Positions 40,050 to 57,234 of a stretch of 64,000 nt of DNA are shown one piece after another. The DNA lies in assembly GCA_028688995.1 (NCBI GenBank), contig JAQTXB010000001.1, positions 62,001-126,000 of the forward strand. The letters are read 5' to 3'. The translations under genes were made by a program, and so were the position numbers. The stretch comes from Aliarcobacter sp. Its GTDB lineage: Bacteria; Campylobacterota; Campylobacteria; Campylobacterales; Arcobacteraceae. The notes below the pieces were generated by a model that worked only from the letters and a program-made list of their open reading frames with translations, searched no databases and had not been told where the DNA came from. Positions within the stretch are counted from its first letter, which is position 1. Every line of letters begins with the position of its first letter.

Positions 40050-40090
40050 AAAACTCAAGTAAAATAACATTTTTACTTGGGTTATATTTT
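40050..40090. terminator. Bidirectional terminator purT / pilus-like operon
   Basis: CAAGTAAAA (40056-40064) pairs with TTTTACTTG (40071-40079) around a 6-base loop. A-rich and T-rich flanks serve both strands. It marks the end of the long minus-strand operon. Confidence 0.6.
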
Positions 40091-41149
40091 TATGTTTAAA
40101 GAGTACTGCATTCCTTCATTTTCTATATTAGTAACTTCAAACTTTGCATTTAGCATGTTTGCTAAATTTTTTGCTTCAAGAATAACTTTATTATCATCAT
40201 CTGCAACAAATAAGCTATTAATATTCTTAATTTCAAACCCATTATTTCGTACAATTAGTTGAATATTTGATTTTGATATTGAAACTGTTACATCTATTTG
40301 TTTTTGAATTTTTCCTTTTTTTAGCTCTTTTTTTATTAAATCTATACAAGACTGCTCAATAAAACAAGATAAAATATTTTCTAAATAAGCATTATTTAAA
40401 TAGATTGGTTTAACTAAAGCTGTATCTACAGTATAATCTATAAAAATTTTATATCTTACATTTGCATAAGTAAAGTTATCTGTTCTTCTTTTATGTAATT
40501 CTAAAAGGTAATTCAAATTATTTAGATTTGAGATTTTTTCAATGGGATGATTTAAATTATCTATTTCATACTCGAATTTCTTTAATTCCTCATACTGTAA
40601 AGCATAAGAATCTATTGTTTCAAAAATAATTGTACTATTAATTAAATCTTCAACACCCATTTTATTAATATTTTTATCAAATATATCTGTATTAAACATC
40701 TCAAGAAAATATTTAAGATTATAAAGTCTATTTTTTAAAATTAGAAGATTCTTTGTATCATTTAAATACTTATCTTTTAAATCTTTTGATAAATTAGTAT
40801 GCTTTAGATTTACTTCTAATAGTTGTAAGAAATTTTGATCATCAAAAATTAGATTTGTTACTTCAAACTTTTGCTCTTGAGAGCATAAAACCAAGACTTC
40901 TTTTAATTTATCTTTTACTATGGCTAAAGATTCATCCAAACATAGATTTATTGCTAATATTGATGGTTGAATATCTTCGTGTGTTTCATTAAAAACTTGC
41001 CGATTTAATCTTGTTTTCCCACCATTTTCACTTGAAAAGATCTCTGCAATATTAAAAAATCTATTGTATTTTGGTATTAATATCTTTAATTCATTTGATA
41101 TTTTCTGTAAATCAAATAAAACAGCCGATATATTTTCATTATTATTCAA
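40082..41149 (-). CDS. Degenerate HATPase-like protein at the end of the pilus-like operon
   Basis: This 355-residue cytoplasmic protein has a long helical N-terminal region and a C-terminal part that resembles a GHKL ATP-binding domain. Its NNAYLENILSCFIEQ corresponds to the N-box helix of a histidine kinase, and VRNNGFEI (Arg301-Gly304 region) to the G1 box, but the key Asn and Asp residues are missing and there is no clear H box. It is probably a non-catalytic relative used for protein contacts. Its ATG lies nine bases after the PilP-like gene stop, so it is the last gene of the operon. A regulatory role is only inference. Confidence 0.55.
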   Translation of the reverse strand: MNNNENISAVLFDLQKISNELKILIPKYNRFFNIAEIFSSENGGKTRLNRQVFNETHEDIQPSILAINLCLDESLAIVKDKLKEVLVLCSQEQKFEVTNLIFDDQNFLQLLEVNLKHTNLSKDLKDKYLNDTKNLLILKNRLYNLKYFLEMFNTDIFDKNINKMGVEDLINSTIIFETIDSYALQYEELKKFEYEIDNLNHPIEKISNLNNLNYLLELHKRRTDNFTYANVRYKIFIDYTVDTALVKPIYLNNAYLENILSCFIEQSCIDLIKKELKKGKIQKQIDVTVSISKSNIQLIVRNNGFEIKNINSLFVADDDNKVILEAKNLANMLNAKFEVTNIENEGMQYSLNIKI

Positions 41150-41158
41150 TTTTATGTC

Positions 41159-42187
41159 CTACATACAATTTTTATCAGAACTTACACTATCATCAATAAT
41201 TTGCACCCAATTGTTTTGCGTTGATACTTTCATCACATCACCTGATATTTTTTTATAAATGGTATCAATTTGAACCCAATCTTCAGCTTTTTGTTTTACG
41301 CTAAACTTATCATCTATTTTTAATACTCTAAGTATTTTTCCATTTAAATTACTATTATCTCTAACATTTAGATTTTGTTTTTTTACTGTATATAAACAGT
41401 TAGAGTTTGATTCATTAGCCTTTGCAATTTCTTTAGTTGGAACTTGCTCAAAAGCTTTTTTTATAGGATACTCTTCTTTTATTAAAGCTTTTACTTCTTC
41501 TTTTTTGATAGTTTTAGGTGTATCTTTTTTCTCTTCGGGTTTTTGTGTTTTAATTAAATCACTTACAGAAATTCCATAATTACTTAGATAAATTGTATAA
41601 CCATGCTCATCATCAAGTTTTTTATATAACTCTATACTTTTTGTTCTTGTATTTATACTTACTATTTTATGCTCAAGAATTGAATCACCCTCAATATATC
41701 GACCCTCTATATTAGCACTTAATTCAGCTCCATCTTTCTTTGTTTTAGCAGTTTTTGTAGTCTCATCTTCAAGTTTTAACACAACATAATCTTTTCCATT
41801 AAAAGAGTACATACTTTTAATTTTTAAATCTTTTAACTTTTTTGTTCTAGTGAAATCTGTTGTAAGTTTTGCCATATCATTTTGGTGTGTAAATACATAT
41901 TTTTCATAATCTTCTTGGGAAAGTTTTGGCTCTTCTTTTATTAATGCTTTATTCTGATTATTTACAATTCCTGCTGTTTGGTTAAGATCTTTTTTATTTT
42001 TTATTGCACTTACTTGTTCTTCTAAATAATCCTTTTCAAGGCCAGTAATTGCATTAAAAAACTCTTTTGATTGTTTATCTAAAACATCTAATTTATCAGC
42101 ATTTTGCATCTGATTTGAAATTGATTCTTCTGCTTGTAAATTAAGTGCTACAAAAAATAGAAATGTAAGTATCTTTATTTTTTTCAT
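41159..42187 (-). CDS. PilP/GspC-like periplasmic protein with SH3b tail
   Basis: This 342-residue exported protein has a signal peptide cleaved near residue 19 (LQA before EESI). The region to about 100 is helical and polar. A central beta-rich stretch (about 120-215) includes SMYSFNGKDYVVL, GRYIEGDSILEHKIVSI and IELYKK, which resembles the GspC/PilP domain that links the inner-membrane platform to the secretin. A Lys/Glu linker follows, then a C-terminal bacterial SH3 domain (LYTVKKQNLNVRDNSNLNGKI) that could bind peptidoglycan. It lies between the RCC1 protein and the HATPase-like gene. The PilP/GspC assignment rests on pattern and context. Confidence 0.55.
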   Translation of the reverse strand: MKKIKILTFLFFVALNLQAEESISNQMQNADKLDVLDKQSKEFFNAITGLEKDYLEEQVSAIKNKKDLNQTAGIVNNQNKALIKEEPKLSQEDYEKYVFTHQNDMAKLTTDFTRTKKLKDLKIKSMYSFNGKDYVVLKLEDETTKTAKTKKDGAELSANIEGRYIEGDSILEHKIVSINTRTKSIELYKKLDDEHGYTIYLSNYGISVSDLIKTQKPEEKKDTPKTIKKEEVKALIKEEYPIKKAFEQVPTKEIAKANESNSNCLYTVKKQNLNVRDNSNLNGKILRVLKIDDKFSVKQKAEDWVQIDTIYKKISGDVMKVSTQNNWVQIIDDSVSSDKNCM

Positions 42188-42205
42188 TTTTTCCCTTTTA
42201 ACTTT

Positions 42206-44350
42206 TTATTTAAATATAAATTCATAATTAAATCCACCAATATATGTAGGATATTTTATATAAAACTTACTATTATTTAACCATGTACCTGATGTCATTG
42301 TTGTAATAGACCCAGATTTTTTTTCCACTAAAAGAAAATCTTTGTTTTCATCATGTAAATTTGCGTTAAAAAGTGGTAATATCCACCCCGTTCCTGAAGG
42401 ATTAACCATATTCCCCCAACAATACATTTGGTCATTTACATCTATTCCACACATTGCATTATCATCTGATATAACTCTTATATCTTTCCACTTTATTTGT
42501 GAAATTGCATTCTCAAAAAGGGCATCATAGATTGAAGATATTTTATAATTACCTTTTAATTGATTATTACTATTTACCCAAACTATCCCATCACTACTAT
42601 CAGTAATATCTTTTGAAAAATCTACTGATAATATTCTTGCATCATTTGTTTCATCATAAGTAGCAGCATACTTATTTTCTTTTATAATTGATTCAACACT
42701 TGTTATTACTCCACTTGTTGAAATTCTATAAAAGTTTCCACTATTATCAACTGCCTTAAAATATTTTCTTCCTCCAACAATAGAACTAAAGTTTACTGTT
42801 GAATCTATTTTTATTGGGTTACAATAAGAATTTACTGAAGTTTCAGAACAATCTCCCCCGTTTGATAATCCCCATATATAAAGATTTCCCACAGTATTTA
42901 AACCTAAAATCTTTCTAAATGAAGAAGATTCAGTATAAGTAATATCTTTAAATCTAATTTCACTGCTTTTGGTTGGTACAAAAATATTTGTTTCTGTTTT
43001 ATTTCCTGTTCCAGCCCAACCACTTAAATTATCTTTACCCCAGAAATAAAGAATATATCCATCAACTGTATCAGTATCAACTCTACTAAGAACTAAATAA
43101 GTATTATCAATAGCTATTATTGTTTTTGCTTTATTTGTAATGCCGTTAAAGAATGTACTTCTATATAAATATTCCATATTATTTTTAGTACCTTTTAAAT
43201 AATTACTAAATTCAATATAATTATTTTCTAATACATCTTCTCCACCACAATATAGTTCTCCTTTAATAGTTATTCCACAAGTACTATGTGTATCTTCTGA
43301 AAAGAAATCTATAAAATTTGCTCTAAGAGGAGATGAATGGAAATGCTTATTATTAAAATTATTAGTATATGGAACTTCTTTACTATCATCATATACTATT
43401 GCTTTTGCATTAATCATTGTATTAACTATTAGATTGCCTGTGCCACTATTTCCTGTTGTATCTGTGTATGAATTATTTCCAATAGAAACTGTTTTATTTG
43501 TATTATTCCCCCATGTAAATATATCTCCATTAATAATTAATCCTCCACCTGAATTAGAAAATCTCATTAATGTTTTACCAACACTTTTAGTTGGATTCAA
43601 ATCAACTAGATTCTTTTCTGTATTTAAATACTGTTCTACAGAATTATTATTACCTTCTCGCAATATTTTCTGTCCAGCATACATAAAATTTTTACTTTTG
43701 ATTAACTCTAAAAAAATAGATGAAATAGTGCCGTTATCATTTAAAACACTGACATTTTTATCTACTATTAAATCATTTCCTAAAGAAAATTTATAATTAC
43801 CTTTTTCATACCAGTGTAATACAGCCTTATCATCTAAATAATACCCTGTAAATTCTCCTAAATTATTTTTATCAGTTGTTATATCATCCTCAAATTCCAT
43901 TTTATATTTTTCATCAGAAGATAATAATATTTCTACTTCATCATAATCATCATTATTATTTTTATTAAATTTTAATGGTGCTTTTGTATATGTTCTATAT
44001 TTATTTGAATAATAATAATCATATAAATTTGATTTTAGAACTCTATCACTAGAGGTAAAAGAACTTATTTTATGATTTGTCAAAATTTGAGTTTCTCTAC
44101 CAAAAGGATCAATTAGATTAAATCCCCTTGGTAAATAATTTAAATCTCTTAGGTTTGATACTGTAATTAAATTATTTGTTACTTTATTTGTTCCTTTTTC
44201 AGAAATATATTTTTTATAAGCAACTGCAATTTCTTCTTCTTTTTCTACAAGTTTTTTTACTTTTGCTAAAGTTAAAGAGTTAATATACTCATCATTAGCA
44301 AAAATATTTAAAGCTAAAGAGATTAAAATTAGCAACCTTAATAGAAACAT
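42206..44350 (-). CDS. Secreted RCC1-repeat protein, 714 residues
   Basis: This protein has a signal peptide (cleavage near residue 18, IFA before NDEY) and an N-terminal helical module (VKKLVEKEEEIAVAYKKYI) shared with three other proteins of the operon. The remainder has RCC1-type repeat phrases: GDIFTWGNN, GELYCGGED, YFWGKDN, GNLYIWGL and QMYCWGN. These suggest a beta-propeller. The last residues, KYPTYIGGFNYEFIFK, nearly repeat the end of the 1130-residue protein at 49991-53383. No membrane anchor follows the signal peptide. It is a good candidate for a surface or pilus-tip protein exported by the adjacent machine; that is inference. Confidence 0.7.
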   Translation of the reverse strand: MFLLRLLILISLALNIFANDEYINSLTLAKVKKLVEKEEEIAVAYKKYISEKGTNKVTNNLITVSNLRDLNYLPRGFNLIDPFGRETQILTNHKISSFTSSDRVLKSNLYDYYYSNKYRTYTKAPLKFNKNNNDDYDEVEILLSSDEKYKMEFEDDITTDKNNLGEFTGYYLDDKAVLHWYEKGNYKFSLGNDLIVDKNVSVLNDNGTISSIFLELIKSKNFMYAGQKILREGNNNSVEQYLNTEKNLVDLNPTKSVGKTLMRFSNSGGGLIINGDIFTWGNNTNKTVSIGNNSYTDTTGNSGTGNLIVNTMINAKAIVYDDSKEVPYTNNFNNKHFHSSPLRANFIDFFSEDTHSTCGITIKGELYCGGEDVLENNYIEFSNYLKGTKNNMEYLYRSTFFNGITNKAKTIIAIDNTYLVLSRVDTDTVDGYILYFWGKDNLSGWAGTGNKTETNIFVPTKSSEIRFKDITYTESSSFRKILGLNTVGNLYIWGLSNGGDCSETSVNSYCNPIKIDSTVNFSSIVGGRKYFKAVDNSGNFYRISTSGVITSVESIIKENKYAATYDETNDARILSVDFSKDITDSSDGIVWVNSNNQLKGNYKISSIYDALFENAISQIKWKDIRVISDDNAMCGIDVNDQMYCWGNMVNPSGTGWILPLFNANLHDENKDFLLVEKKSGSITTMTSGTWLNNSKFYIKYPTYIGGFNYEFIFK

Positions 44351-44841
44351 TATTTTATTTCCCTAGCCTTTGATACATAATCTACAAAATAAATGCTCTC
44401 ATTCTTTTCACTTTTTTTGATATTCCCAATATATGATAAAATTCCTTCTGCTGCTTGTAAGCCTTTTTCACTTTGGGCACTAACTTGAGTAACAATCAAA
44501 TATCTATCAAGACACATTTTTTTTGAATCTAAATATTTTATTTCATAATCTAAAACTGACATTCTTTCGAATATATCTTTTACCTTTGTTTCAAGTTCTT
44601 CTTTAGATATATATTGTTTTTCAACTGCTTCTATTTTATTTTTAGAGGCTTCAACTTTACTTTTTAAATTGTTAGTTTCGACTCTTTTTTCTTGTAAAAC
44701 AATTTCTAATTGCTCTTTTTCAATTGCTATTTTGTAATAAATAATAGTTTTATATGCTAAAAATAATATTGTATATCCAACAAGTATTGTTAATCCAATT
44801 TTACTAATGTATGAAACGGTTTTATTTGCAATACTAATCAT
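44350..44841 (-). CDS. PilO/GspM-like inner-membrane protein
   Basis: This 163-residue protein has a short cytoplasmic N-terminus, one membrane helix (about residues 14-33), a coiled coil (about 38-90) and a small C-terminal globular part. This is the shape of PilO and GspM, which pair with PilN/GspL in the assembly platform. It overlaps the preceding PilN/GspL-like gene by four bases and shares one base with the RCC1 gene after it, so it belongs to the core operon. Sequence signatures of the family are weak, and the call depends on order and topology. Confidence 0.55.
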   Translation of the reverse strand: MISIANKTVSYISKIGLTILVGYTILFLAYKTIIYYKIAIEKEQLEIVLQEKRVETNNLKSKVEASKNKIEAVEKQYISKEELETKVKDIFERMSVLDYEIKYLDSKKMCLDRYLIVTQVSAQSEKGLQAAEGILSYIGNIKKSEKNESIYFVDYVSKAREIK

Positions 44842-45593
44842 TTTGAAACCTCTTTATTAGTGCTAATACAATCAGTTAACTCTTTATATTTTTTTTCACT
44901 ATTATCAAGTAAGGTTTGCTGTCTTTTGGCTAATTGGGTCTCAATTTTTATCTCTTGATTTACATTATCTAAAGATTGTTGTTCAAATAATTTTGCAGTA
45001 GCAAAGTCTAAACCAAAAAATATTGTCCATAAAATGAATCCTATTAAAAATATTGAATAAAACATTTTTGTTGTGTGAGATTTAAAAGTATCTAATTCAT
45101 TAAGTGGTTTTACTAAATCATTAATTTCCCCCAATGATTTAGCAACTACTTCATTTTTCTCATTTTTTGTATTTTGTTTTAGAATATTTTCAATAGCACT
45201 TTTGTATTTTGAATTTATTACATAATAGATATTTTCTATAGCTCCACCACTTGAAAGCATTGCAATATGTTTTGTTATTAAAATCGATTTAATCATATCA
45301 TCTGTAATAAAATTCTGATTAATTTTTGCAGAATATACTGTTTTATGATTAAATAAAATTACATACTCATTTTCAGCTATATGTATCAAAAACTGATTTT
45401 TTTCTAAATACTTTTTTGATAAAAGATTTAAAGAAAAAACCTCTTCTGTTGTTTCATATCTTGAAAGAAAAACACTATACTTCTTAAAAGAGTTGTATGT
45501 GAACATATTTTGAGAAGAGGCAAACTCGTCATTTAAATAAAATGTTTCATTTTGCTCTTTTGTTGCAAAATCTGTTATTACTAATCGTACCAT
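44838..45593 (-). CDS. PilN/GspL-like inner-membrane protein
   Basis: This 251-residue protein has a cytoplasmic N-terminal domain of about 170 residues, a single membrane helix at about 177-197 (MFYSIFLIGFILWTIFFGL) and a short periplasmic coiled coil. GspL and PilM-PilN fusions have this layout: a cytoplasmic actin-like part that contacts the ATPase, then a bitopic part that pairs with GspM/PilO. The cytoplasmic domain is smaller than that of GspL, and I see no ATP-binding motif. It overlaps the ATPase gene by 13 bases. Confidence 0.55.
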   Translation of the reverse strand: MVRLVITDFATKEQNETFYLNDEFASSQNMFTYNSFKKYSVFLSRYETTEEVFSLNLLSKKYLEKNQFLIHIAENEYVILFNHKTVYSAKINQNFITDDMIKSILITKHIAMLSSGGAIENIYYVINSKYKSAIENILKQNTKNEKNEVVAKSLGEINDLVKPLNELDTFKSHTTKMFYSIFLIGFILWTIFFGLDFATAKLFEQQSLDNVNQEIKIETQLAKRQQTLLDNSEKKYKELTDCISTNKEVSK

Positions 45594-47272
45594 ACTTCCT
45601 CCCCTCTAATAATCGCCATAGCATCTTCTTTAGTGATTAAACCTTCATGATATTGAGCCATACAAGCCTTTTCAACAGTCATGTATTCCGCAGGATTTTC
45701 AAAATCTCCACCATGCCCTATTTTAAACCTTACAACCTCAGCAATCGGAACCCTATCTTTGAATCCAGTATTATTACACTCATCACAACCAACCTTTTTA
45801 AATCCACCCTCACCATCTTCTTCTTTACAGAATTTACATAATTTTCTAACTAATCTTTGAGATACAATCCCTCTTAAGTTATCGATTATATCCCCTTCAT
45901 TAATTCCAAGTGAACTTGTCATCCTTGAAACAGTAGCAGGTGCAGAGTTGGTATGCATTGTAGAGAAAACTAACTGACCTAAGTTAGATGCATTTACAAG
46001 TTGTGCTGCCGTTTGTGGTTCCCTTGTTTCCCCAATTAGGATGATATTTGAATCTTGTCTTAAAATATCAACAACTGCTTCTGGGTAACCATATTTAAAC
46101 TCTTCACTTGCACTTGCAAATTCAGATAAATCGATTTGGAAGAACGATTCATCAACATACTCAACTGGGTCTTCAATGGTAATAACATACTGTTGTTGTT
46201 TTGCCAATTGTTGTAAAAGAGCATACATCAAGTGTGTTTTTCCAGAACCTACTTGCCCTGTAATTAATATCATTCCATTTGCATATTTTGTTAAATTTGA
46301 CAAAATATCAACTGTTTCCTGCGGATAATTTAATCCTCTTAAATTATGAGAAACAACTCCTCGTCCACCAATCATCCTCATAACTAATGAGAAGTTTAAT
46401 TTTGAATTTATAAGCCCAAGTCTGAATTTAATACTTTTTTTACCATATTCATAATTTATAACCCCATTGATAGATTCGTAATCTGAATCCTCTTGGTCAG
46501 CCATAGTTACAAGTCTTCTTTTTAAAGTTTTTGCAATTGTAATTGGCATTGTTCCCATATCAACTTTAATACCATCAATTCTAAACCATAAGGTTGCATA
46601 TCTACTTGTTTTTTGAATATGTATATCTGATGCCCCAAGAAGGATAGCTTGTCCCATCATTTTGTCAAAATATTTATTTATCTCTTCATCATTTTCAGTG
46701 TCACTATTTGAATTAAAAATAATCTCTCTATCTTCTCCAAAAACAGAAGATAAAACACCCTCTCCTAAAACAACTATTTTTGTAAAATAGAATTTACTTA
46801 AAACATCAAAATCTAAGTTTACAACATCCCTAATACCTAAAACTTTATTTTTGATTTTTTTATCTTCCAAAGTTATGATATACATTGTTGTACATAACTC
46901 TAATTTTTTCTCATCTAATTGAAATGAAGTATCTTGGTAATATTTTGACAATTCACTATAACTTGCATAATATTCATACCCAAGTGTTCGAACAAACTCA
47001 GCATATTTCTCTTCATTGGCAATTAAATCTCCATATCCACCTTTTAATTGGAATTTGTCTTTAATCATATCTTCGATTAATATACCCAACTGAGTATCAA
47101 TATCTTCACTTTTACCTAAAAACTCAAGGAATTTATTTTTTTGTTTCTCAAAAATAGCCATATAATCTATTTTCTTTAATTCAACTCTTTTCTTTTTATT
47201 CTCTTTTTTTCCTTTTTTTAAAAAAGAGAATTTTGGAACATTTTGAAAGGTTGTAAGAATTTTTTTAATCAT
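45581..47272 (-). CDS. GspE/PilB-type assembly ATPase
   Basis: This 563-residue hexameric motor ATPase of the type II secretion/type IV pilus superfamily has Walker A GQVGSGKTH with Lys345, the Asp box VITIEDPVEY, Walker B LIGETREPQTA, the His box STMHTNSAPATVSRM, and the metal-binding tetracysteine (CKFC, then CDEC about 17 residues later) that marks extension ATPases rather than PilT. The N-terminal 180 residues are diverged, and I see no MshEN c-di-GMP motif. It is followed by GspL/M-like genes and preceded by a GspF-like gene. It would drive assembly of the pilin-like proteins of this operon. Confidence 0.9.
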   Translation of the reverse strand: MIKKILTTFQNVPKFSFLKKGKKENKKKRVELKKIDYMAIFEKQKNKFLEFLGKSEDIDTQLGILIEDMIKDKFQLKGGYGDLIANEEKYAEFVRTLGYEYYASYSELSKYYQDTSFQLDEKKLELCTTMYIITLEDKKIKNKVLGIRDVVNLDFDVLSKFYFTKIVVLGEGVLSSVFGEDREIIFNSNSDTENDEEINKYFDKMMGQAILLGASDIHIQKTSRYATLWFRIDGIKVDMGTMPITIAKTLKRRLVTMADQEDSDYESINGVINYEYGKKSIKFRLGLINSKLNFSLVMRMIGGRGVVSHNLRGLNYPQETVDILSNLTKYANGMILITGQVGSGKTHLMYALLQQLAKQQQYVITIEDPVEYVDESFFQIDLSEFASASEEFKYGYPEAVVDILRQDSNIILIGETREPQTAAQLVNASNLGQLVFSTMHTNSAPATVSRMTSSLGINEGDIIDNLRGIVSQRLVRKLCKFCKEEDGEGGFKKVGCDECNNTGFKDRVPIAEVVRFKIGHGGDFENPAEYMTVEKACMAQYHEGLITKEDAMAIIRGEEVWYD

Positions 47273-47283
47273 ATTTTATCTTC

Positions 47284-48300: not shown

Positions 48301-48302
48301 AA

Positions 48303-49982
48303 TTAAAAGCCTTTAATATTTCTAAGAGTAACCACATAAATGATTTCTCTTCTAACATAAGATTTTGAATCTGTTCCACCTATTGCAAAGCCTTCAATAG
48401 GAAGAACTCCTTGATAATTTTTTACATCATCATGAACAATAATAGAACCAACAATTGATGTTTCACCTAGTCTTACTTCCCTTGAAATATTATAACTTTG
48501 GTCATTGTATTGAGGAAGTTTTATCATTGTGCCATCTACACTTACTTCACCAAATTCTATAAGTTTTTTAATACTTGGAGCTATATTTAAGAATATTTTA
48601 TCCCTAGATATTTTTGCCATAGCAGTTATTGATGTTCCCTCTTTTAGAGTATTTACTGTTACATCTGATGTTCTTACATTTGTGTCTGCATCAATTGTTG
48701 TTTCAATTTTTTCTACATAATCAGTATTATCTGTAATTGATTGAACAGTTGGTATATTATTTTTTAGAACTAACGTATTTTTGCTATAATTTAATATCTT
48801 ACCTATTTCATTGTTTGCAGTTGCAGTTACTTCTAATAATCTTGTAGCATTATCACTTGCAAAACTAAATGTACCACCAGTTCCCAGACTTTTTGCTACA
48901 CCTGTTCCTGCATTTGTTTGTCTATCATCTGATATTGTTCCTATTCCATATTGTCTATTTTTATTTAAGATAAGTTCAATTCTTTCAAACTCTACAACTG
49001 CCTCTTTTGCAAAAGATGATTCATAAGCTTTTGCAATTGCTCTTACAGCATTTTCAACAGATGTTGTTGATTTTAAGAATATTAATCCACTTGATTTATC
49101 TATATGATATGTTGATATTTTATCTGTTGATATTATATTTTTTAACATTTTATCTAGCTCATCATAGAGTATGATTTGTGAATTATTTTCTACTTTACTT
49201 TCACCTGAAGATGATGATGAAGAGTTTGATGAAGAGGCAGTTGATTGATTTGATGATTTCATATCTAATAATGGAATATTTAATTCAATAACCATATCTT
49301 TATATCTTGAAATATTTATAGCTTCTTGATCATAATCTATATCTACAAATACATCTTTTGCATGAGATAGAGCATTTAAGGCATCTTTTAAATTTTTTGA
49401 ACTAATACTAATAACACTATTTTGGAAATCATCTCTATCATCAATATAACTTCCAATATTTACTGCATATCCAGATTCAGCAGTAATAAGTTTTATTAAC
49501 TCCTCAACTGAAATTTGACCATCAAGTTTAAAAGGAATATGTTCAATTGATTGTTTTTTTGTTTCACTTGCATTTAAAAGTTGAACTAAATAAATTGAAC
49601 CGCTTTTTTTAATAAAAAGTTCTTTATCTAAAACAGCATTTAAATATTGATTTAACTCTGTAATATTGTGTATTTTAATTCTACTTTTTGGTATTAGAAG
49701 ATCACTACTTTTCAAATAATAGAAATTACCATCAAGTATCTCCATCTCTTTTAAAATATCTCCTAATGATTTATCTTCTAAAATACTTATAAACTCTTTT
49801 TTAACATTTTTTTCATCAACTAATGTACCAGCATAAGATTCTTTTATGCCTTTATAGTCTTTTTTATCCAGAGAGTTCTTTGTACTATCAATCATCTCTT
49901 CATGATAACTTTTTGAACTGCAGCCTCCAAAAAGTATTACAAATAAGATTAATAGCAATTTTATATTTAATTTTCTTAGCAT
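48303..49982 (-). CDS. Lipoprotein secretin, PilN (type IVb) / GspD family
   Basis: This outer-membrane secretin of 559 residues has a lipobox with Cys21 (LFGGC), so it is a lipoprotein that can insert without a separate pilotin. N-terminal N-domains (about 60-330) contain a Ser/Asn-rich low-complexity linker at about 243-262. The C-terminal secretin core (about 330-555) shows VPTVQSITDNTDYV, LKEGTSITAMAKIS and REVRLGETSIVGS, a pattern close to R64-type PilN secretins. Length and lipidation also fit that type IVb group. It forms the exit pore for the filament or secreted proteins of this operon. Confidence 0.88.
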   Translation of the reverse strand: MLRKLNIKLLLILFVILFGGCSSKSYHEEMIDSTKNSLDKKDYKGIKESYAGTLVDEKNVKKEFISILEDKSLGDILKEMEILDGNFYYLKSSDLLIPKSRIKIHNITELNQYLNAVLDKELFIKKSGSIYLVQLLNASETKKQSIEHIPFKLDGQISVEELIKLITAESGYAVNIGSYIDDRDDFQNSVISISSKNLKDALNALSHAKDVFVDIDYDQEAINISRYKDMVIELNIPLLDMKSSNQSTASSSNSSSSSSGESKVENNSQIILYDELDKMLKNIISTDKISTYHIDKSSGLIFLKSTTSVENAVRAIAKAYESSFAKEAVVEFERIELILNKNRQYGIGTISDDRQTNAGTGVAKSLGTGGTFSFASDNATRLLEVTATANNEIGKILNYSKNTLVLKNNIPTVQSITDNTDYVEKIETTIDADTNVRTSDVTVNTLKEGTSITAMAKISRDKIFLNIAPSIKKLIEFGEVSVDGTMIKLPQYNDQSYNISREVRLGETSIVGSIIVHDDVKNYQGVLPIEGFAIGGTDSKSYVRREIIYVVTLRNIKGF

Positions 49983-49990
49983 CTGTTTCC

Positions 49991-52900
49991 TTATCTAAAA
50001 TAAAATGGATAATTAAATCCACCTATGTATGTTGGATATTTTAAAAATAATTTCCCATCATTGTAATATTCATCAAAAGACAATTGATTTGATTTTTCTC
50101 CATCTTGAGTAATAAATAACTTATTAATTGATGATATTTTATCTACATCATATAAAGAAGTACTTAAAATAGGCACACTTCTAGCCACATTTCCCCAGCA
50201 ATACATTTGTGAGGCATCTTCTATTCCTGTCATTGCACAAACAAATTTTTTATATGTCTCTTTCAATTTTACTTTCACATTATCTATTCCCCAAGATTCA
50301 TCATCTAGCGATTGACCATAATACCAAATATTTCCATTAGAATCAGATAAAGCCCCATACTCTCCTGCAACTAAATCTCTTACTCTCATTAAAATATGGA
50401 GTTTTCCATTATTATCAAGTTTTGTTCTTAATTTATATACATATTTTTCATCATTATTTTTTGAATATTTTTGACCTGTTTGATTACATGTCGATACATC
50501 TTGATTATAACTTTTCCCTAAATTTAATGTATAAACACCCGAATCATTTGTATCTCTTACTGCATCATGGCAATCATGAATAAAGCCATCTTCAGCAACC
50601 AATTCACTATTTAAAAAAACTTGAAATCTCTCCATATCCCATGAATCAATTTCATAGAAATCTAATTCAACTTCAACTTCATAATTTGCATAGCTTGTTC
50701 CAAAATCATAAGTTTTTTCAATACTTTCTTGCCCTAAAAGTAATCTTCCTAAAATTCTAGTAGGGTCAACTCTCTCTGTTATAGGCAATTTAGATGTATC
50801 TGCAGTTGTTTCAGTTGCTGTTGTAGTAGGAGGGATCCCAGTGCTAATAAGATTTCCCGGATTAAAATTTCTTCTTGCCGTGTAAGTTTTTAATGTCCAA
50901 GTTGATGCATCATTTTCAAAATTACTAAATGATAAAATTTTTCCATCACTTCTTGAAATTTTTATATTATCAACTCCCCATGATTCATTTGAAACTCCGT
51001 CATTTAAAGTACTTGAAAAACCTAATCTTACACGACCATTTGAATCTAAAGTTGTATCAATACTTATCTCATGTTTCTCTTCATTCCCACTCCAACCAGA
51101 ACCATCAACAATTAAAGATGTACCACCATCATTTCTATTAAGTTTATATTTTTTCTCAAATTTTTTAACTCCATTTATATATACTCTAAAATACTCATCA
51201 TCCCAAGAATCAATCTCATAAAAATTAAATGTAATATTTATACTTTTATTTGCATTCTCACTACCTAAATCAAATGTTTTATTCAAATAATCAACAGAAC
51301 TAGAACTAGAAGCAAACCTTCCTAAAAATGTTGTAGCATCTGTTCCTCCATTATAACTATTTGTTCTATTCCAACCTACGGTATCATCTTCAAAATCATT
51401 AATAATTTCTTCTATTTCATGATCCAATTTAAATATTGATACATTAGTAAAATTTGCTAGTTTATTACTTATCTCATTATTCGCAGTATTTAAATAATTT
51501 ATAGAACTATCAAAAATTTCATTTGAATTATTATCACATAATGAAGTTTCATTTGATTCTTTACAAGATAATAAAGTACTTGAACCTTTTAATTTTAAAT
51601 TTTCATCAATATATAGTAAGTATTCATTATTCTTGTTATCTTTATAATATGAAAGACTTATTGGTGTTCCTTCTAAAGAAGAATTAATAGATTCTATTTC
51701 TAAGTTTCCTTTAGTTTTATAATATGTACCATCTATTCCTTTTAATACAAATTCATTTGTATTTACAAATATTGCATCAGGATTAAATTGTTTTGAATTT
51801 GCAATTGCGGTAGGCTTTGTAATTACACTATCACCTCTTTCTCCCCAAATGTAAAAAATATTATTTGAATCTATCGCTCCAAAAGTTCTGCTATCTCTTA
51901 ATGCAAATATTTTTTTAAAAACTATATCTGAATTTACAGAAACTAAAGTTGGTGAATAAACAAAATAGAAATAATCACTAGAATCTATCCCTAAAGAACC
52001 CTTATAATTTTTCCCAATTACATAAATTTTTCCATTATCTGATAATAATGCAGTTACATCTTCTATCATTGCAATATCTTTTAAATATATTGCATTACTA
52101 TTTTTTATTTTTGATGATTTCCCTGTATAAATTGATATATTTCTTTTTAAAATATTACTTTCAACAGCTGTACTAGATAAATCTTCATAATATCTAGAAG
52201 TTATATTTCCATCACAATATAAATCTCCACCAAACTTGTAAGTGTCTGTTCCTTCTACATATTCAAAAATTTTAGTAATAGCACAAACATTACTTCTATT
52301 CATTGCCATCTTGTCAAACTTCACTCTATATGGGTTGTTATACCATTTTATTCCATTTAAATCATAAGTTGTTGTACCAATTTTTATATTATCAATCTGG
52401 GTTTTTAGCATCACTGGAGTGTTAATATAAGATGGAGATAATGTTGTATCTAATTGTCCATAAGAAGAAATTCCAGCTTTTTTATAATCATTATTTCCCC
52501 AACAAAATATATCTCCACTTGCAAGCATACATCCACCACTTTGTCTTATAAATAAATCTTTTGCATTTGGAATATAACTTGATATTTTTTCAGCATATAC
52601 AATTTCTTCTTCTTGCTGACTAGCAAGTTTTTCACCTTCTCCTATGGGAATCCAAGGGATTCCTAAATTCCCTTGATAATAGTATTCAAACCATTCCCCA
52701 TTTTTTTGTACATAAGCTGAAGCACCAATATTTGCTCTAATATACTGTAAGTCATTCCAGTCTTCTACATAAATTGGAGACTCTTGATAAATAGTTAAAG
52801 AAGTTCCATCTGTTTTGCAATATTTATATGTTAATTTTTCATTTCTTAACTCATAAAAATATTTCTCACTTGTACAATTTTGATTAGGTAACAATAACAA

Positions 52901-53383
52901 ATTAGCACTATCTTTTCTTAGTAAAGCTATCTCTTTTTGAACATCATTATATAAAACTTGAGTACCTTTTACTAATTCACTTTTTAAAGTATTTTTAGGA
53001 GGAATAGTATTTACTCTAAATACTTTATTTACATAGAAGTTGTATAAATATTTATATTCATCTTTATAATTCACTTCTGTTTCAATAGCTCCTTTTATAT
53101 AAGCATTATTATTTGCATCAAAGGTCACAACTATATCATTTGAAGTGATAGGATTCTTTTTATTAAAATCAACTCCTAAATAATCGTCAACCATAAGTTT
53201 TGTCCAATCTAAAGATTCAACATTTTTAGGTATTGTTCCTGTTTGCAAAATATATTTATTTAATGCAAGTGATATATATTCTTCCTTTTGAATAAGTAAT
53301 TTAACATCATTCATCAAAGATATATTTTCATTTGATGCGAAAACAAAGTTAAATAGTATTAGTATAGAAATTAGAGTTTTGAT
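49991..53383 (-). CDS. Large secreted RCC1-repeat protein with tandem adhesin-like domains
   Basis: Counted from base 53383 this protein has 1130 residues. The frame upstream of the first NTG codon (TTG 53317) encodes a good signal peptide (IKTLISILILFNFVFA, then SNEN), and AAGGTG lies six bases before the ATC at 53383, so a non-standard ATC start is likely. The helical N-terminal module shared with three neighbours follows (KLLIQKEEYISLALNKYIL). RCC1-like phrases include GDIFCWGNN, GDLYCDGN, IYVIGKN and FYIWGERG. Two beta-sandwich-like domains carry FYEIDSWD and ESWGxDN pairs. The end, LKYPTYIGGFNYPFYFR, matches the 714-residue protein. It is probably a surface or filament-tip adhesin. Confidence 0.7.
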   Translation of the reverse strand: MKTLISILILFNFVFASNENISLMNDVKLLIQKEEYISLALNKYILQTGTIPKNVESLDWTKLMVDDYLGVDFNKKNPITSNDIVVTFDANNNAYIKGAIETEVNYKDEYKYLYNFYVNKVFRVNTIPPKNTLKSELVKGTQVLYNDVQKEIALLRKDSANLLLLPNQNCTSEKYFYELRNEKLTYKYCKTDGTSLTIYQESPIYVEDWNDLQYIRANIGASAYVQKNGEWFEYYYQGNLGIPWIPIGEGEKLASQQEEEIVYAEKISSYIPNAKDLFIRQSGGCMLASGDIFCWGNNDYKKAGISSYGQLDTTLSPSYINTPVMLKTQIDNIKIGTTTYDLNGIKWYNNPYRVKFDKMAMNRSNVCAITKIFEYVEGTDTYKFGGDLYCDGNITSRYYEDLSSTAVESNILKRNISIYTGKSSKIKNSNAIYLKDIAMIEDVTALLSDNGKIYVIGKNYKGSLGIDSSDYFYFVYSPTLVSVNSDIVFKKIFALRDSRTFGAIDSNNIFYIWGERGDSVITKPTAIANSKQFNPDAIFVNTNEFVLKGIDGTYYKTKGNLEIESINSSLEGTPISLSYYKDNKNNEYLLYIDENLKLKGSSTLLSCKESNETSLCDNNSNEIFDSSINYLNTANNEISNKLANFTNVSIFKLDHEIEEIINDFEDDTVGWNRTNSYNGGTDATTFLGRFASSSSSVDYLNKTFDLGSENANKSINITFNFYEIDSWDDEYFRVYINGVKKFEKKYKLNRNDGGTSLIVDGSGWSGNEEKHEISIDTTLDSNGRVRLGFSSTLNDGVSNESWGVDNIKISRSDGKILSFSNFENDASTWTLKTYTARRNFNPGNLISTGIPPTTTATETTADTSKLPITERVDPTRILGRLLLGQESIEKTYDFGTSYANYEVEVELDFYEIDSWDMERFQVFLNSELVAEDGFIHDCHDAVRDTNDSGVYTLNLGKSYNQDVSTCNQTGQKYSKNNDEKYVYKLRTKLDNNGKLHILMRVRDLVAGEYGALSDSNGNIWYYGQSLDDESWGIDNVKVKLKETYKKFVCAMTGIEDASQMYCWGNVARSVPILSTSLYDVDKISSINKLFITQDGEKSNQLSFDEYYNDGKLFLKYPTYIGGFNYPFYFR

Positions 53384-54124
53384 TTAATTCACCTTTAAAA
53401 TTTTATTATCTATCAATTTTACATATCTTGAACTATTTTGTATAAAAATATAAGAGCCAACTTTCAAGTTTCTTAATTTTATATCATCTATTACAGATGA
53501 ACTCACTATTGTCACATTACCATCTTCGAAATCTTGCTTATTATATTCTATCCAGTTTGAAGCACTGTTATACCATCTAATAGAATTTTTATCATAATTG
53601 CAATATGTATTTTTTAAAGAACTTGAACAAGTTTTTGAAATATTTTGGCCTGAGCTTAGAATTTTAAAAACTGTTTTTGCTTCTGCTGATTTTAACTTAA
53701 ACTCTGTATAAGAATCAGCCAAAGCATTTGCAACATAAACATATGTGGAATTTCTGTATAAATCTCTATTATAAAGTTGTACTAGATAGTTTTCAATATC
53801 AAGATTTACATCTCTTTTTTTTCTATATTCATCTTTTGTGATTGCATATTTTAGTTGTAATTTACTATTGTCTTTAAAACCTATATTTTCGCCCATTCTA
53901 TTAACAACAGAAAAATTACTTCCTAAATAATCATCACTTATCAAATTGTCAATACTTGGTATTCTAAATTCTGTTAGAATGTATTTTTCAAAATTTTTAG
54001 CTATGTTTTCTTCAATCTCTATCATATTTTGTACATATAATGTATCTTGTTTTTGAGCTGTTAAATTATCAGTTGCAAAAGATGATATTATAAGAATAAA
54101 TAAAAATAGTATATTTCTAATCAT
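53384..54124 (-). CDS. Secreted module protein, 246 residues
   Basis: This protein has a signal peptide (cleavage near residue 17, SSFA before TDNL) and consists only of the N-terminal module found in the two RCC1 proteins: VQNMIEIEENIAKNFEKYIL, a DDYLGSNF phrase, an LYNRDLYRNST phrase and a Cys pair (TCSS and TYC) in the second half that could form a disulfide. Its stop codon is followed directly by the ATC that may start the large RCC1 protein. It overlaps the preceding gene by four bases. The function is unknown; it may be a minor structural subunit of the machine. Confidence 0.6.
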   Translation of the reverse strand: MIRNILFLFILIISSFATDNLTAQKQDTLYVQNMIEIEENIAKNFEKYILTEFRIPSIDNLISDDYLGSNFSVVNRMGENIGFKDNSKLQLKYAITKDEYRKKRDVNLDIENYLVQLYNRDLYRNSTYVYVANALADSYTEFKLKSAEAKTVFKILSSGQNISKTCSSSLKNTYCNYDKNSIRWYNSASNWIEYNKQDFEDGNVTIVSSSVIDDIKLRNLKVGSYIFIQNSSRYVKLIDNKILKVN

Positions 54125-54843
54125 TTTAATACCTTAATTCCATTAAGTGTTTTTACATATTTTATTCCATCAATATCATAAAGTAAAGCACCTTTTGGAA
54201 TAGAATCAAATTCACTTTTTGTATGATCAGCAATAACATTAGTAATTACAATGGGACCTGTTTTAAACTTATCAATGTGATAAACTATTAGATATGTATC
54301 TGGAACATAATCTATTCCTTCAAGTTTTTTTGTAAGTTGAATATAAATATGATTATTCTCTTTACAATTTATTGGTGTAGTAAAAACACTATTTGGACAA
54401 TTAATAATTGCTCCATTTTGTTTTATTAAATCATACAAATGTTTTGCGAATTCATCTTCAAGAAGAAAATTTATTTTTCCATTCCTAAAATAAGTTCTTT
54501 TTCTAAAAGTATTACTTTCATATAAAGCTTTTATTGAACTATCTGCTTTTACATCATCACTTATACCATAAGAAATTATTGTCAAACTACTATCTAAAGT
54601 AAGAGTTGAAGTAACACCAGTAACTGTTGTAGTAACATCTCCTATTAAACTTTTTATTTGAGTTAAATTAGGAATAGCATAATTTGTCAAAATATACTCT
54701 TCATATGCTTTTGCAATTGACTCTTCGTATAGAACAATTGATTTTACATCTAGTAGAACTTTTTGTCTATCATCAAAATTATTTAAATCAAAAGAAAAGG
54801 ATATATTTATTAAAATAAAAAACAAGACAACTACTATTTTCAT
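54121..54843 (-). CDS. Secreted module protein, 240 residues
   Basis: This paralogue of the next gene has a signal peptide (about residues 1-17, ISFS before FDLN) and then the shared helical segment (VKSIVLYEESIAKAYEEYIL), the LYESNTFRKRTYF phrase and a Cys pair (NCPN and INC). The C-terminal half is beta-rich. It overlaps both neighbours by four bases, so it is translated in series with them. No family is recognised. Confidence 0.6.
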   Translation of the reverse strand: MKIVVVLFFILINISFSFDLNNFDDRQKVLLDVKSIVLYEESIAKAYEEYILTNYAIPNLTQIKSLIGDVTTTVTGVTSTLTLDSSLTIISYGISDDVKADSSIKALYESNTFRKRTYFRNGKINFLLEDEFAKHLYDLIKQNGAIINCPNSVFTTPINCKENNHIYIQLTKKLEGIDYVPDTYLIVYHIDKFKTGPIVITNVIADHTKSEFDSIPKGALLYDIDGIKYVKTLNGIKVLK

Positions 54844-55574
54844 AATAAACTTTCCAATTCTTTATATAATCTTGTCTCCATTGCAGAATCATTTAAATAT
54901 AATCTTTCTTTTATTTTTGATTTAAAATAATCTTTTTGTCTACTTTTTAAGGTATCTGTATCAATTGATGTTTCACTACTTGTTAAAAAATTAAAGTAAA
55001 ATTTATCATAAGGTGTAAATTCAGTTAATATGCTTTCTAATACTTCTGTTTTATCTGGATTTGTAGTATATAAAATTCTTTCTGATAAAGATTGTATAGC
55101 TCTATTTATACTATTTTCAATATCTATATCTTTTATTGCACTATTTTTTTCTTCTTTCCCTACTGCAAAGATATATTTACCATTCGTAGGAGTTATATTA
55201 TTCATATTCGTTATATCTTTTAATTTTGCTTTTAAAGCTAAAAGTTTTAATTTCTCATCTTTACTTATTTCAATATTTCCAGCACTATTTACAAGCTCTT
55301 TATTTGTTAAATTACTATCTTTATTTCTATCTAATAATAAAACTTTCTCCCAATTTTCACCTTTTGGTAAATGGACAATTATTTCATCTCTTGTGATATC
55401 TTGTGGATTTTTGTTGTATTGTTTGGCTAGTAGGGTTTTGATTTCTGAGATTATTTCATAATTTTCTTGGATTTGTTTTGCTTCTTGAACATCACTGTAA
55501 GATTTGTACATTGCAGATGCTGAAAATATAGCTGTAACAATAAGAGCAGACGATAGCCATATATTTCCAAACAT
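54840..55574 (-). CDS. Membrane-anchored protein, possible minor pilin
   Basis: This 244-residue protein begins MFGNIW and has a hydrophobic helix at once (about residues 5-22), then a long polar helix (SDVQEAKQIQENYEIISEIKTLL) and a mixed C-terminal domain. The shape recalls a pseudopilin, but there is no basic leader, and Glu5 is absent after the only Gly (residue 3). It lies between the two pilin-like genes and the module proteins. It may be a minor pilin or a bitopic assembly protein; the sequence does not decide. Confidence 0.5.
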   Translation of the reverse strand: MFGNIWLSSALIVTAIFSASAMYKSYSDVQEAKQIQENYEIISEIKTLLAKQYNKNPQDITRDEIIVHLPKGENWEKVLLLDRNKDSNLTNKELVNSAGNIEISKDEKLKLLALKAKLKDITNMNNITPTNGKYIFAVGKEEKNSAIKDIDIENSINRAIQSLSERILYTTNPDKTEVLESILTEFTPYDKFYFNFLTSSETSIDTDTLKSRQKDYFKSKIKERLYLNDSAMETRLYKELESLL

Positions 55575-55696
55575 TAATAAAAACCCTTCAAAAAAAGAAA
55601 CTCAAAATAAAAAGTAAATACTATGAAATTTTTAGTACTTAGTTTTTAGTTTATAAAAATAAACACTTAGGCAAAAAAGCCTAAATGTATTTAAAA

Positions 55697-56383
55697 TTAT
55701 TGAACCACGCTTGCTGGCATATCTTTAAAATAAATAGTAAAAATTCCATCATCAAGACCTGTAGTAGCAGTCCCATTTTGTGCAGCTGCTCTATTTCCAT
55801 CAGGTACATCTCCGTTTAAAGTCAACTCTACTGCAGTTCCATCTGTCGTAGTTCTATCAATTGATGCTACAGATGCTAAATCACTTGCAATTTGAGACTC
55901 AAGAAATCCTGCATTGCCTGCTAACTGACCCAAAAATTGAACTCTTATTCCTGGTCTTTGTGTAATAGTTGTTGTTGATGGGCTAGTTGAACTACTTACT
56001 AAACTAATAATCATTCCTGGATTATCTTCTCCACCAAAAGATATAGCACTATATGCATTAGAACCTCTATTTGCAATACCTGCTGTAGTATTATTTCTTA
56101 CTTCTTGATTTATTTGATCAGCAAAGTATTCTCTTGTTGCTAAATCTGCTAATACTGTCACTGTAGCAGGAACTGCAGGTGTCACTGTAGCATCACCTGG
56201 AGTATTAAATACATCTCCTGCTCTTAAAGCTAATTGCAAACCATTTTTAATGTTGTTAATCTCTGTAATAACACTCGTTTTTTGAGCTATTCCCTCAATT
56301 TTATCACCAGTTCCACCAAATGTTTGGAACATATAAATCATTGCTGCAACTACTACGATTACCATCGCTATCAACTGTGGCAT
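55697..56383 (-). CDS. Leaderless pilin-like protein, 228 residues
   Basis: The start is fixed by AAAAAGGAT six bases upstream. The protein opens MPQLIAMVIVVVAAMIYMF, a hydrophobic helix beginning at residue 4, followed by a polar helical spine (EINNIKNGLQLALRAG) and a Thr/Ala/Gly-rich globular region. This is the layout of a mature type IV pilin, yet there is no charged leader, no Gly before the helix and no Glu5. Removal of Met before Pro would leave an N-terminal proline. Position ahead of the secretin, ATPase and platform genes makes it a candidate major subunit. There are no cysteines. Confidence 0.55.
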   Translation of the reverse strand: MPQLIAMVIVVVAAMIYMFQTFGGTGDKIEGIAQKTSVITEINNIKNGLQLALRAGDVFNTPGDATVTPAVPATVTVLADLATREYFADQINQEVRNNTTAGIANRGSNAYSAISFGGEDNPGMIISLVSSSTSPSTTTITQRPGIRVQFLGQLAGNAGFLESQIASDLASVASIDRTTTDGTAVELTLNGDVPDGNRAAAQNGTATTGLDDGIFTIYFKDMPASVVQ

Positions 56384-56467
56384 TTTTCTATCCTTTTTGT
56401 TAAATTTAACTTTTTTGACCTAAAGGTCATTATTATACAACAACTATTGTTCAGTTGCACCAATTTT

Positions 56468-57079
56468 CTATTTAAATATTATACAAACAAAAAGTCCATC
56501 ACTTTTGTTTGTACTTGCTCCAGTAAAATTTTTAGCTGAGGAATCATAAGATGTACGATTTAACTCTAATGTGCCAAATAACATCTTTTCACAAAATTCC
56601 CTACCTGAGAAACTCTCTGCAAAAACTGCTTTACTCATCAAAGTATTATTCCCTCTCATATCAACTAAAAGTTTATATCCACTTCCTGAAGATGTACCAT
56701 AAGTAGTATCTGTACTAGGAATAGGTATTAACTGCCATATAACTGAGTTAGACGGAAAAGTTAACTTTGAAGCATTAAAACTACCTGTTACATTATCAGT
56801 TGCACCATCAGCTGTAGCTGTTGTGTCACAATTTGTTGCAGATAAAGTATCTTTTATATTACCTGACAATATTCCTGAACATGACAATTTTTGAAAATTC
56901 ACATCTGTCAAATCCCCACCAGATTGAACAAAAGTATTCACAAACCCATCAACCATAGAAAACATTGACTTCGTGCTATCAAGTTCAGTTGAGATTGCAC
57001 TATCATCTGCTTCATATCTTGTTAATAAAATAATTGTTGCAGCAACAACAGCTATTATTGATGATACAAGATATGGCAT
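56468..57079 (-). CDS. Leaderless pilin-like protein, 203 residues
   Basis: This first gene of the operon has AAGGAACAAA directly before the ATG. It starts MPYLVSSIIAVVAATIILL, like the next gene, and continues with a polar helix and a Ser/Thr/Gly-rich domain that contains four cysteines (LSCSG, TNCDT, REFCEK, FVCII) in the second half; they could form two disulfides as in many pilins. It has no prepilin leader. It is probably a filament subunit, either major or minor relative to its neighbour. Confidence 0.55.
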   Translation of the reverse strand: MPYLVSSIIAVVAATIILLTRYEADDSAISTELDSTKSMFSMVDGFVNTFVQSGGDLTDVNFQKLSCSGILSGNIKDTLSATNCDTTATADGATDNVTGSFNASKLTFPSNSVIWQLIPIPSTDTTYGTSSGSGYKLLVDMRGNNTLMSKAVFAESFSGREFCEKMLFGTLELNRTSYDSSAKNFTGASTNKSDGLFVCIIFK

Positions 57080-57206: not shown

Positions 57207-57234
57207 CAACGATTATTTAATAGGATTTATTATT

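What the first reader, a model, noticed from the sequence alone, without database searches (positions are those of the whole stretch)
40082..57079. Self-contained type IVb-pilus/T2SS-like locus with RCC1 cargo
Fourteen minus-strand genes combine core assembly proteins (lipoprotein secretin, GspE-like ATPase with tetracysteine, GspF-like platform, GspL/M-like and GspC/PilP-like proteins) with pilin-like proteins and four large or medium secreted proteins. I know of no described system that combines this core with RCC1-repeat exoproteins. No retraction ATPase or prepilin peptidase is present in the window. The machine may make an adhesive filament or export the RCC1 proteins.
Basis: partly seen in the sequence, partly recalled or inferred. 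Interest (0 to 1): 0.85.

Follow-up and report, generated by a model that had tools for sequence, protein, structure and literature searches.

The report
Leaderless type IVb-like pilus with RCC1 adhesins
This is a conserved 14-gene machine of Arcobacter-like bacteria that probably builds a sticky surface thread tipped with propeller-shaped proteins, and its thread subunits start directly at the position where all textbook pilins must first be cut, which would be a new way to make such threads.

Summary
In detail: fourteen co-directional genes (40082-57079, minus strand) form one conserved locus. It occurs in 25 of 104 Arcobacteraceae genomes; gene order was intact in all 14 I read in full. The core is a lipoprotein secretin (MshL/BfpB-like), a tetracysteine GspE/PilB-type ATPase and a GspF/PilC-type platform. 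The AlphaFold model of the pilin at 55697-56383 matches type IV pilins ahead of everything else (TcpA Z 7.5, CofA 6.8; first non-pilin 3.2).

In all 23 genomes read, the first encodes MP-x-LIA at its start codon, behind a Shine-Dalgarno site, with no upstream start. The host's own T2SS pseudopilins keep canonical leaders. The most likely reading is a type IVb-like pilus whose subunits skip prepilin-peptidase processing.

The two RCC1 proteins are better read as pilus-tip adhesins than as free cargo. They have Sec signals, share an N-terminal domain with two smaller secreted proteins, and carry RCC1 repeats. The larger has a hypervariable, swappable (once lectin-type) insert; full-length copies occur only with the core. 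RCC1 pilus adhesins have a precedent (Saccharibacteria PilX2). Filament formation and processing are untested.

The parts
56468..57079 (-). Leaderless pilin-like protein N (203 aa, MPYLVSS...), conserved Cys pair C163/C199; minor or second pilin
   Evidence: Alignment A3; start-site check in 23 genomes; profile match to the 55697-56383 pilin, hhalign E 5e-7
55697..56383 (-). Leaderless type IVb-like pilin M (228 aa, MPQLIAM...), probable major pilin
   Evidence: AlphaFold model pLDDT 65, VIA-align top 11 rows all type IV pilins; start-site check; alignment A2
55663..55688 (-). Terminator-like hairpin just after the pilin gene, possible partial terminator giving more pilin than downstream product
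   Evidence: consensus match only; 5 found, 3.0 expected over the region
54840..55574 (-). Protein L (244 aa): N-terminal hydrophobic helix MFGNIWLSS..., no charged leader; possible minor pilin
   Evidence: alignment A11 and start-site check; no profile match to pilin M
54121..54843 (-). Secreted protein K (240 aa), Sec-type signal, shares a domain with J, I and C
   Evidence: hhalign J vs K E 2.9e-33
53384..54124 (-). Secreted protein J (246 aa), Sec-type signal, shares a domain with K, I and C
   Evidence: hhalign J vs C E 3.7e-21; J vs K; BLAST J vs I E 4e-4
49991..53383 (-). Large RCC1 protein I (1130 aa from an ATC start; 1108 aa from TTG): signal, shared N-terminal domain, RCC1 repeats, hypervariable insert about residues 650-1000 of the 1108-aa form, conserved C-terminus
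48303..49982 (-). Lipoprotein secretin H (559 aa)
   Evidence: MshL TIGR02519 E 3.6e-12; BfpB E 1.4e-4; invariant Cys21
47284..48300 (-). Platform protein G (GspF/PilC type, 338 aa)
   Evidence: T2SSF in 11 of 12 orthologues
45581..47272 (-). Extension ATPase F (563 aa, Walker A, tetracysteine)
   Evidence: PF00437 E 2.6e-65; GspE/PilB structures E 2e-43; motif
44838..45593 (-). GspL/PilM-N-like bitopic protein E (251 aa), inferred from position and topology
   Evidence: alignment A8; no profile hit
44350..44841 (-). GspM/PilO-like protein D (163 aa), inferred from position and topology
   Evidence: alignment A7; no profile hit
42206..44350 (-). RCC1 protein C (714 aa): signal, long helix 20-52, RCC1 beta-propeller 256-671, C-terminus shared with I
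   Evidence: C-terminal 87 aa match to I, E 2e-11
41159..42187 (-). Signal-bearing PilP/GspC-like periplasmic protein B with C-terminal SH3_3 domain (342 aa); PilP likeness by eye
   Evidence: SH3_3 in 10 of 12 orthologues, best 9.9e-8
40082..41149 (-). Conserved protein A (355 aa), no known family
   Evidence: alignment A13, no Pfam family

Best explanation
The locus builds a type IVb-like pilus through a lipoprotein secretin. Shown: the secretin, ATPase, platform and a protein with a predicted type IVb pilin fold are encoded together and inherited together. Shown: the pilin genes begin at or within a few residues of the mature N-terminus, with no positively charged leader and no Glu5. Inferred: the pilins insert into the inner membrane with the N-terminus inside, are not cut by prepilin peptidase (at most the initiator Met is removed, since residue 2 is Pro, Ala or Gly in both pilins), and are polymerised by the ATPase and platform. 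Inferred: proteins J, K, I and C enter the periplasm by their Sec signals, meet the growing filament through their shared N-terminal domain, and are carried through the secretin at the tip. There the RCC1 propellers, with the variable insert of the large one, bind surfaces or cells. With no PilT-type ATPase seen in the genome, retraction, if any, is motor-independent.
For: Pilin fold: VIA-align of the model of 55697-56383 ranks type IV pilins in all top 11 rows (TcpA 8uhf Z 7.5 over 153 residues, CofA 6.8, C. difficile PilA1/PilW 6.8, PilS 5.3), first non-pilin 3.2. Leaderless: in all 23 genomes read there is no upstream ATG/GTG/TTG in frame for pilin M and an AAGGA/AGGGG-type site lies just upstream of the start. 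The same genome's T2SS pseudopilins begin MKKAFSLMELMVV, MKKSFTLLELL and so on. Register: model residue 3 aligns with residue 2 of the TcpA chain; the first charged residue is D27, near K27 of the host's mature GspG. Machine. Linkage: secretin and platform searches return the same 27 of 104 genomes, and full-length large RCC1 homologues occur only in core-positive genomes. Adhesin features: insert region 13-26% identical in most blocks with many gaps, against 58-66% in the C-terminus; one species carries a Laminin_G_3 lectin-type domain (E 1.2e-17) at that site; median identity to the window is 38-44% for RCC1 proteins against 83-84% for ATPase and platform. No PilT. Precedent: PMC12206443.
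Against: The pilin model is only moderately confident (pLDDT 65); plain Foldseek gave no significant hit, and Z 7.5 lies inside the range the tool calls common. All but three of the family's genomes, including those with the locus, have a prepilin peptidase elsewhere, so processing in trans is not excluded: position 6 of pilin M is always Ala, and protein L has Gly or Ala at position 3 in most species, both possible minus-1 residues. No filament has been seen. The role of RCC1 proteins at the tip is by analogy.
Confidence: 0.62

Rival explanations
1. A type IVb-like pilus whose pilins are processed by the host's general prepilin peptidase, cutting after a small residue at position 6 (or 3) of a very short uncharged leader.
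For: Ala6 is invariant in pilin M; position 6 of pilin N is Ser, Ala or Gly; the host peptidase is present; in this genome T2SS pseudopilins have four-residue leaders ending in Ala or apparently Ser (MKKA, MKKS).
Against: The supposed leader (PQLI, PYLV) is hydrophobic and uncharged and runs into the membrane helix; cutting there would leave pilin N about 15 residues before its first charge; the M model's helix 2-54 and its TcpA alignment begin at the start codon.
Confidence: 0.2
2. A type II secretion-like exporter: a short pseudopilus pushes the four Sec-exported proteins out as free exoproteins.
For: Sec signals on J, K, I, C; the ATPase matches GspE structures best by sequence; no retraction ATPase found.
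Against: The host already has a T2SS locus elsewhere; the secretin matches pilus secretins MshL and BfpB; the pilin model fits TcpA/CofA first; the secreted proteins share a domain with each other and stay in the locus, like pilus-associated proteins.
Confidence: 0.2
3. A TcpF/CofJ-like arrangement: a real type IVb pilus that carries the RCC1 proteins out at its tip and then releases them.
For: TcpF and CofJ are signal-bearing secreted proteins of type IVb operons that bind a tip minor pilin by an N-terminal segment (PMC9565799); here too the N-terminal domain is shared.
Against: TcpF and CofJ are not RCC1 proteins; the lectin-type variable insert suggests binding while attached. Not excluded by any test here.
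Confidence: 0.25
4. A DNA-uptake (competence) pilus.
For: Related machines serve competence in Campylobacterota (own knowledge of the Cts system).
Against: A separate Cts-like locus (ATPase plus platform) is present in the genome, and this locus is patchy (25 of 104 genomes).
Confidence: 0.04

Closest known systems
Type IVb pili (TCP, CFA/III, Bfp)
   Same: Lipoprotein secretin related to BfpB, clustered genes, pilin fold closest to TcpA/CofA, signal-bearing partner proteins in the same operon
   Different: Type IVb pilins have leader peptides (typically long) and are cut by prepilin peptidase; here there is no leader, no Glu5 and no peptidase in the locus; partners are RCC1 propellers, not TcpF/CofJ
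MSHA pilus
   Same: Secretin hits MshL (E 3.6e-12), no PilT
   Different: Score 45.9 against a cut-off of 250.2; leaderless pilins; no MSHA-type pilin profile hit
Saccharibacterial T4P-2 with PilX2 (PMC12206443)
   Same: Seven-bladed RCC1 propeller as putative pilus adhesin, non-canonical signal on that protein
   Different: A type IVa-type system in which most other pilins are ordinary; there the RCC1 domain is fused to a pilin, not on a separate Sec-exported protein
PilY1/PilC tip proteins of type IVa pili
   Same: Large Sec-exported proteins with a beta-propeller, encoded with pilins, variable between species
   Different: No Pfam hit to that family; different propeller family (RCC1), no sequence relation detected
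Type II secretion system
   Same: GspE/GspF-type ATPase and platform, GspL/M-like gene positions
   Different: No canonical pseudopilins; secretin not matched to GspD; host has a separate T2SS

Membership tests
Type 4 filament superfamily (T4F) | Pilins with class III signal peptide: hydrophilic leader ending in Gly/Ala, then hydrophobic stretch (PMC10191384) | tested here: not met
   No leader in pilins M and N in 23 genomes; L likewise lacks a charged leader
Type 4 filament superfamily (T4F) | Lollipop pilin fold | tested here: met
   Model of 55697-56383, top 11 VIA-align rows are type IV pilins, Z 4.2-7.5; moderate confidence
Type 4 filament superfamily (T4F) | Extension ATPase | tested here: met
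   PF00437 E 2.6e-65, tetracysteine
Type 4 filament superfamily (T4F) | Platform protein | tested here: met
   T2SSF in 11 of 12 orthologues
Type 4 filament superfamily (T4F) | Secretin (diderms) | tested here: met
   TIGR02519 E 3.6e-12, BfpB E 1.4e-4
Type 4 filament superfamily (T4F) | Prepilin peptidase acting on the pilins | tested here: inconclusive
   None in the locus; two in the genome; action on these pilins not testable here
Type 4 filament superfamily (T4F) | Assembled helical filament | not testable with these tools
   Needs electron microscopy
MSHA pilus | MshL equivalog score at or above 250.2 | tested here: not met
   45.9 bits
Type II secretion system | GspE equivalog score at or above 630.25 | tested here: not met
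   194.2 bits
Type II secretion system | Canonical pseudopilins in the locus | tested here: not met
   No prepilin motif in M, N or L
RCC1 superfamily (proteins I and C) | RCC1 repeats / seven-bladed propeller | tested here: met
   C: UVR8 profile E 4.7e-17, structure Z 17.3; I: RCC1 over cut-off in most orthologues; I itself was not modelled
PilY1/PilC family | Pfam match to the PilC/PilY1 domain | tested here: not met
   No such family among Pfam hits for I and C

The most novel reading that the evidence does not exclude
A type IV-family filament that has dispensed with prepilin processing altogether: its pilins are translated from their mature N-terminus, replace Glu5 by a small residue, and need at most methionine aminopeptidase; the tip carries RCC1-propeller adhesins with swappable binding modules.
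Probability: 0.5. Interest if true: 0.86.

Novelty: new variant of a known kind. Interest (0 to 1): 0.7.

Why it matters
Prepilins are defined by their cleavable leader, and prepilin peptidase is counted among the five ancestral components of the superfamily (PMC10191384). A natural system with pilin fold, ATPase, platform and secretin but leaderless pilins makes a long-standing question directly testable: what the leader, its cleavage, N-methylation and Glu5 are needed for. It also shows, if the tip model holds, a separate route to propeller-bearing pilus adhesins, and gives Arcobacteraceae a candidate attachment organelle for which I found no description in the library searched.

Tried and rejected
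Upstream start codons that would restore a leader: none for pilin M in any genome; for N only in a few (L043, L045, L051), where the conserved start with its Shine-Dalgarno site remains the better one. Sequence-profile search of solved structures with pilins M and N: no pilin hit, so the fold claim rests on the model. Plain Foldseek with M: nothing significant. Profile hits for the GspL-, GspM- and PilP-like proteins: none beyond an SH3 domain. Using co-loss of prepilin peptidase as a test: it is present in 101 of 104 family genomes, so uninformative. RCC1L hits in genomes lacking the core (G088, G089): only the insert module, not the protein; G093: remnant of a broken locus. Protein L as homologue of pilin M: no. 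Literature on Arcobacter type IV pili: nothing describing this locus in the titles and abstracts returned from the open-access library.
Full report
OBSERVATION. I label them by gene order from the promoter end: N, M (pilins), L, K, J, I (large RCC1), H (secretin), G (platform), F (ATPase), E, D, C (small RCC1), B, A. F is a GspE/PilB-family ATPase (PF00437 E 2.6e-65; GspE structure E 2.4e-43) with CxxC...CxxC in every orthologue of the locus. G is T2SSF, weak alone but hit in 11 of 12 orthologues. H carries an invariant lipobox Cys21 and matches the MSHA secretin MshL (E 3.6e-12, under its curated cut-off) and, by profile, the bundle-forming pilus secretin BfpB (E 1.4e-4). E, D and B have the position and topology of GspL/PilM-N, GspM/PilO and PilP/GspC, but only an SH3_3 domain in B was confirmed by profile, so those three names are inference.

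CONSERVATION. Searching 104 Arcobacteraceae genomes with the secretin found 27, and the platform alignment found exactly the same 27. Two of these (G042, G043) are distant loci with canonical prepilins (MKKGITLIEIILAIV), leaving 25 genomes with the locus. In the 14 I read in full (window and G010, G015, G019, G021, G028, G029, G035, G075, G083, G090, G092, G099, G102) the order is the same, although G075's contig ends near the first pilin and G015 has an insertion inside the platform gene. One relative (G049) has a reduced form with both pilins and the machine but no RCC1, J, K or L, and one (G051) a rearranged form with both leaderless pilins and an 896-aa protein with clear RCC1 repeats. The pilin profile finds nothing outside this family in 397 genomes of the phylum. 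Named relatives include Aliarcobacter sp., Arcobacter vandammei and Poseidonibacter lekithochrous.

THE PILINS. M was modelled with AlphaFold2 from eight sequences (pLDDT 65, pTM 0.67; helices 2-22 and 25-54, then a sheet). Foldseek alone found nothing significant. The second aligner, on Foldseek's own candidates, put type IV pilins in the first eleven rows: TcpA Z 7.5, C. difficile PilA1 and PilW 6.8, CofA 6.8, PilS 5.3, TcpB, CofB, FimA 4.2; the next row is unrelated at 3.2. Z values below 8 can mean little by themselves; it is the unbroken run of pilins that is telling. N is related to M by profile (hhalign E 5e-7, mainly the N-terminal half) and has an invariant Cys pair, as in many pilin D-regions (own knowledge).

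NO LEADER. Prepilins are defined by a class III signal: a hydrophilic leader ending in Gly or Ala, cut by prepilin peptidase (PMC10191384). M begins MPQLIAMVIVVVAAMIYMFQTFGGTGDK and N begins MPYLVSSIIAVV in the window, and the same pattern holds in every genome read. For M no upstream in-frame start exists in any of 23 genomes, the upstream frame closes within 1-18 codons, and a purine-rich ribosome site sits just ahead of the ATG. The T2SS pseudopilins of this genome are ordinary (MKKAFSLMELMVV, MNKAFSLMEVIIA, MKKSFTLLELLIS), so the contrast is within one cell. The M model aligns from residue 3 with residue 2 of the TcpA chain, and its first charged residue (27) sits at the place expected for a mature pilin (27 in the host GspG). 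Residue 2 is Pro in every M and Pro, Ala or Gly in every N, all substrates of methionine aminopeptidase (own knowledge). The escape route is cleavage after position 6, always Ala in M and Ser, Ala or Gly in N; I judge it less likely because it falls inside the hydrophobic helix. I put prepilin-peptidase independence at about 0.5-0.6 overall.

THE SECRETED PROTEINS. J, K, I and C all have Sec-type signals (read by eye) and share an N-terminal domain: J with K (hhalign E 2.9e-33), J with C (E 3.7e-21), J with I (BLAST 4e-4). I and C also share their last 87 residues (E 2e-11). C is an RCC1 protein by profile (UVR8 E 4.7e-17) and by model: residues 256-671 superpose on UVR8 and RCC1 at Z 17, with propeller lectins at Z 13-14; its N-terminal part is a long helix 20-52 followed by a mixed domain (model pLDDT 66). 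I has the same plan plus an insert of about 124-395 residues. Around the insert the scaffold is 37-66% identical to the window protein; most blocks inside it are 13-26% with many gaps. In many species the insert contains a DESWGxDN/FYExDSWD-type module (once or twice), in G075 a Laminin_G_3 lectin-type domain (E 1.2e-17) and an AFP_2 repeat. A stable scaffold with a swappable binding module is what a tip adhesin would look like, and median identities (RCC1 38-44%, pilins 47-48%, secretin, platform and ATPase 70-84%) fit surface exposure.

MECHANISM. The best model is a type IVb-like pilus: leaderless pilins in the inner membrane, F and G polymerise them, H lets the filament out, and J, K, I, C travel out at the tip, as PilY1 with minor pilins or TcpF/CofJ with TcpB/CofB do in other pili (PMC9565799). 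Shown here are the gene set, linkage, folds of M and C (by prediction) and the missing leaders. Filament formation, tip position, adhesion and lack of processing are inferred. The whole genome shows four clear PF00437 ATPases (T2SS, Cts-like, Tad and this one) and no PilT, so powered retraction by PilT is unlikely.

KNOWN AND NEW. RCC1 on a type IV pilus is not new in kind: PilX2 of saccharibacterial T4P-2 (PMC12206443). What has no precedent I could find in the papers searched is a set of pilins without leaders. By the membership rule this cannot be filed as a standard type 4 filament, because the class III signal was tested and not met; it works like one. I call it a new variant of a known kind.

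Noticed in passing
window 53383-53381; L043, L044, L046, L058, L089, L091, L092: The large RCC1 gene starts with ATC (or ATT) directly after the in-frame stop codon of J, behind a conserved AAAGGT(G)GA(A/T)TAA-like stretch; close relatives have ATG at the same spot. A conserved non-AUG start in several species, perhaps to keep a tip protein scarce.
   Followed up: partly
L062:2647-6021: In G075 the insert of the large RCC1 protein is a Laminin_G_3 lectin-type domain plus a bacterial antifreeze-protein repeat (AFP_2), instead of the DESWGxDN modules.
   Followed up: partly
L049:7166-8368: A gene for a 400-aa transposase-like protein interrupts the platform gene in G015, so that locus is probably dead.
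   Followed up: no
L085:10492-16485: G093 keeps A, B, C, D and the end of E, then runs into unrelated sequence: a decaying or broken copy of the locus without secretin, platform or ATPase.
   Followed up: yes
window 57178-59889: A GGDEF/PAS diguanylate cyclase is divergently transcribed next to the first pilin; a similar gene lies there in the nearest relative (L057).
   Followed up: no
window 38873-40042: The ATP-grasp (PurT-like) gene borders the locus at the same side in several genera (L046, L056, L057, L058, L060, L085), suggesting one ancestral site with repeated loss.
   Followed up: partly
window 40082-41149: Protein A (355 aa) is conserved with the locus but matches no family; its C-terminal third looks to the eye like a degenerate GHKL ATPase fold (untested).
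   Followed up: partly
L064:16286-17407: The reduced locus of G049 has an extra 373-aa leaderless N-type pilin (MPFLIAVILA...) on the opposite strand.
   Followed up: no
L087 (G083:C1 near 2381636-2382250): The insert module of the large RCC1 protein also occurs in an open frame of 8268 aa, apparently a giant adhesin-like protein.
   Followed up: no
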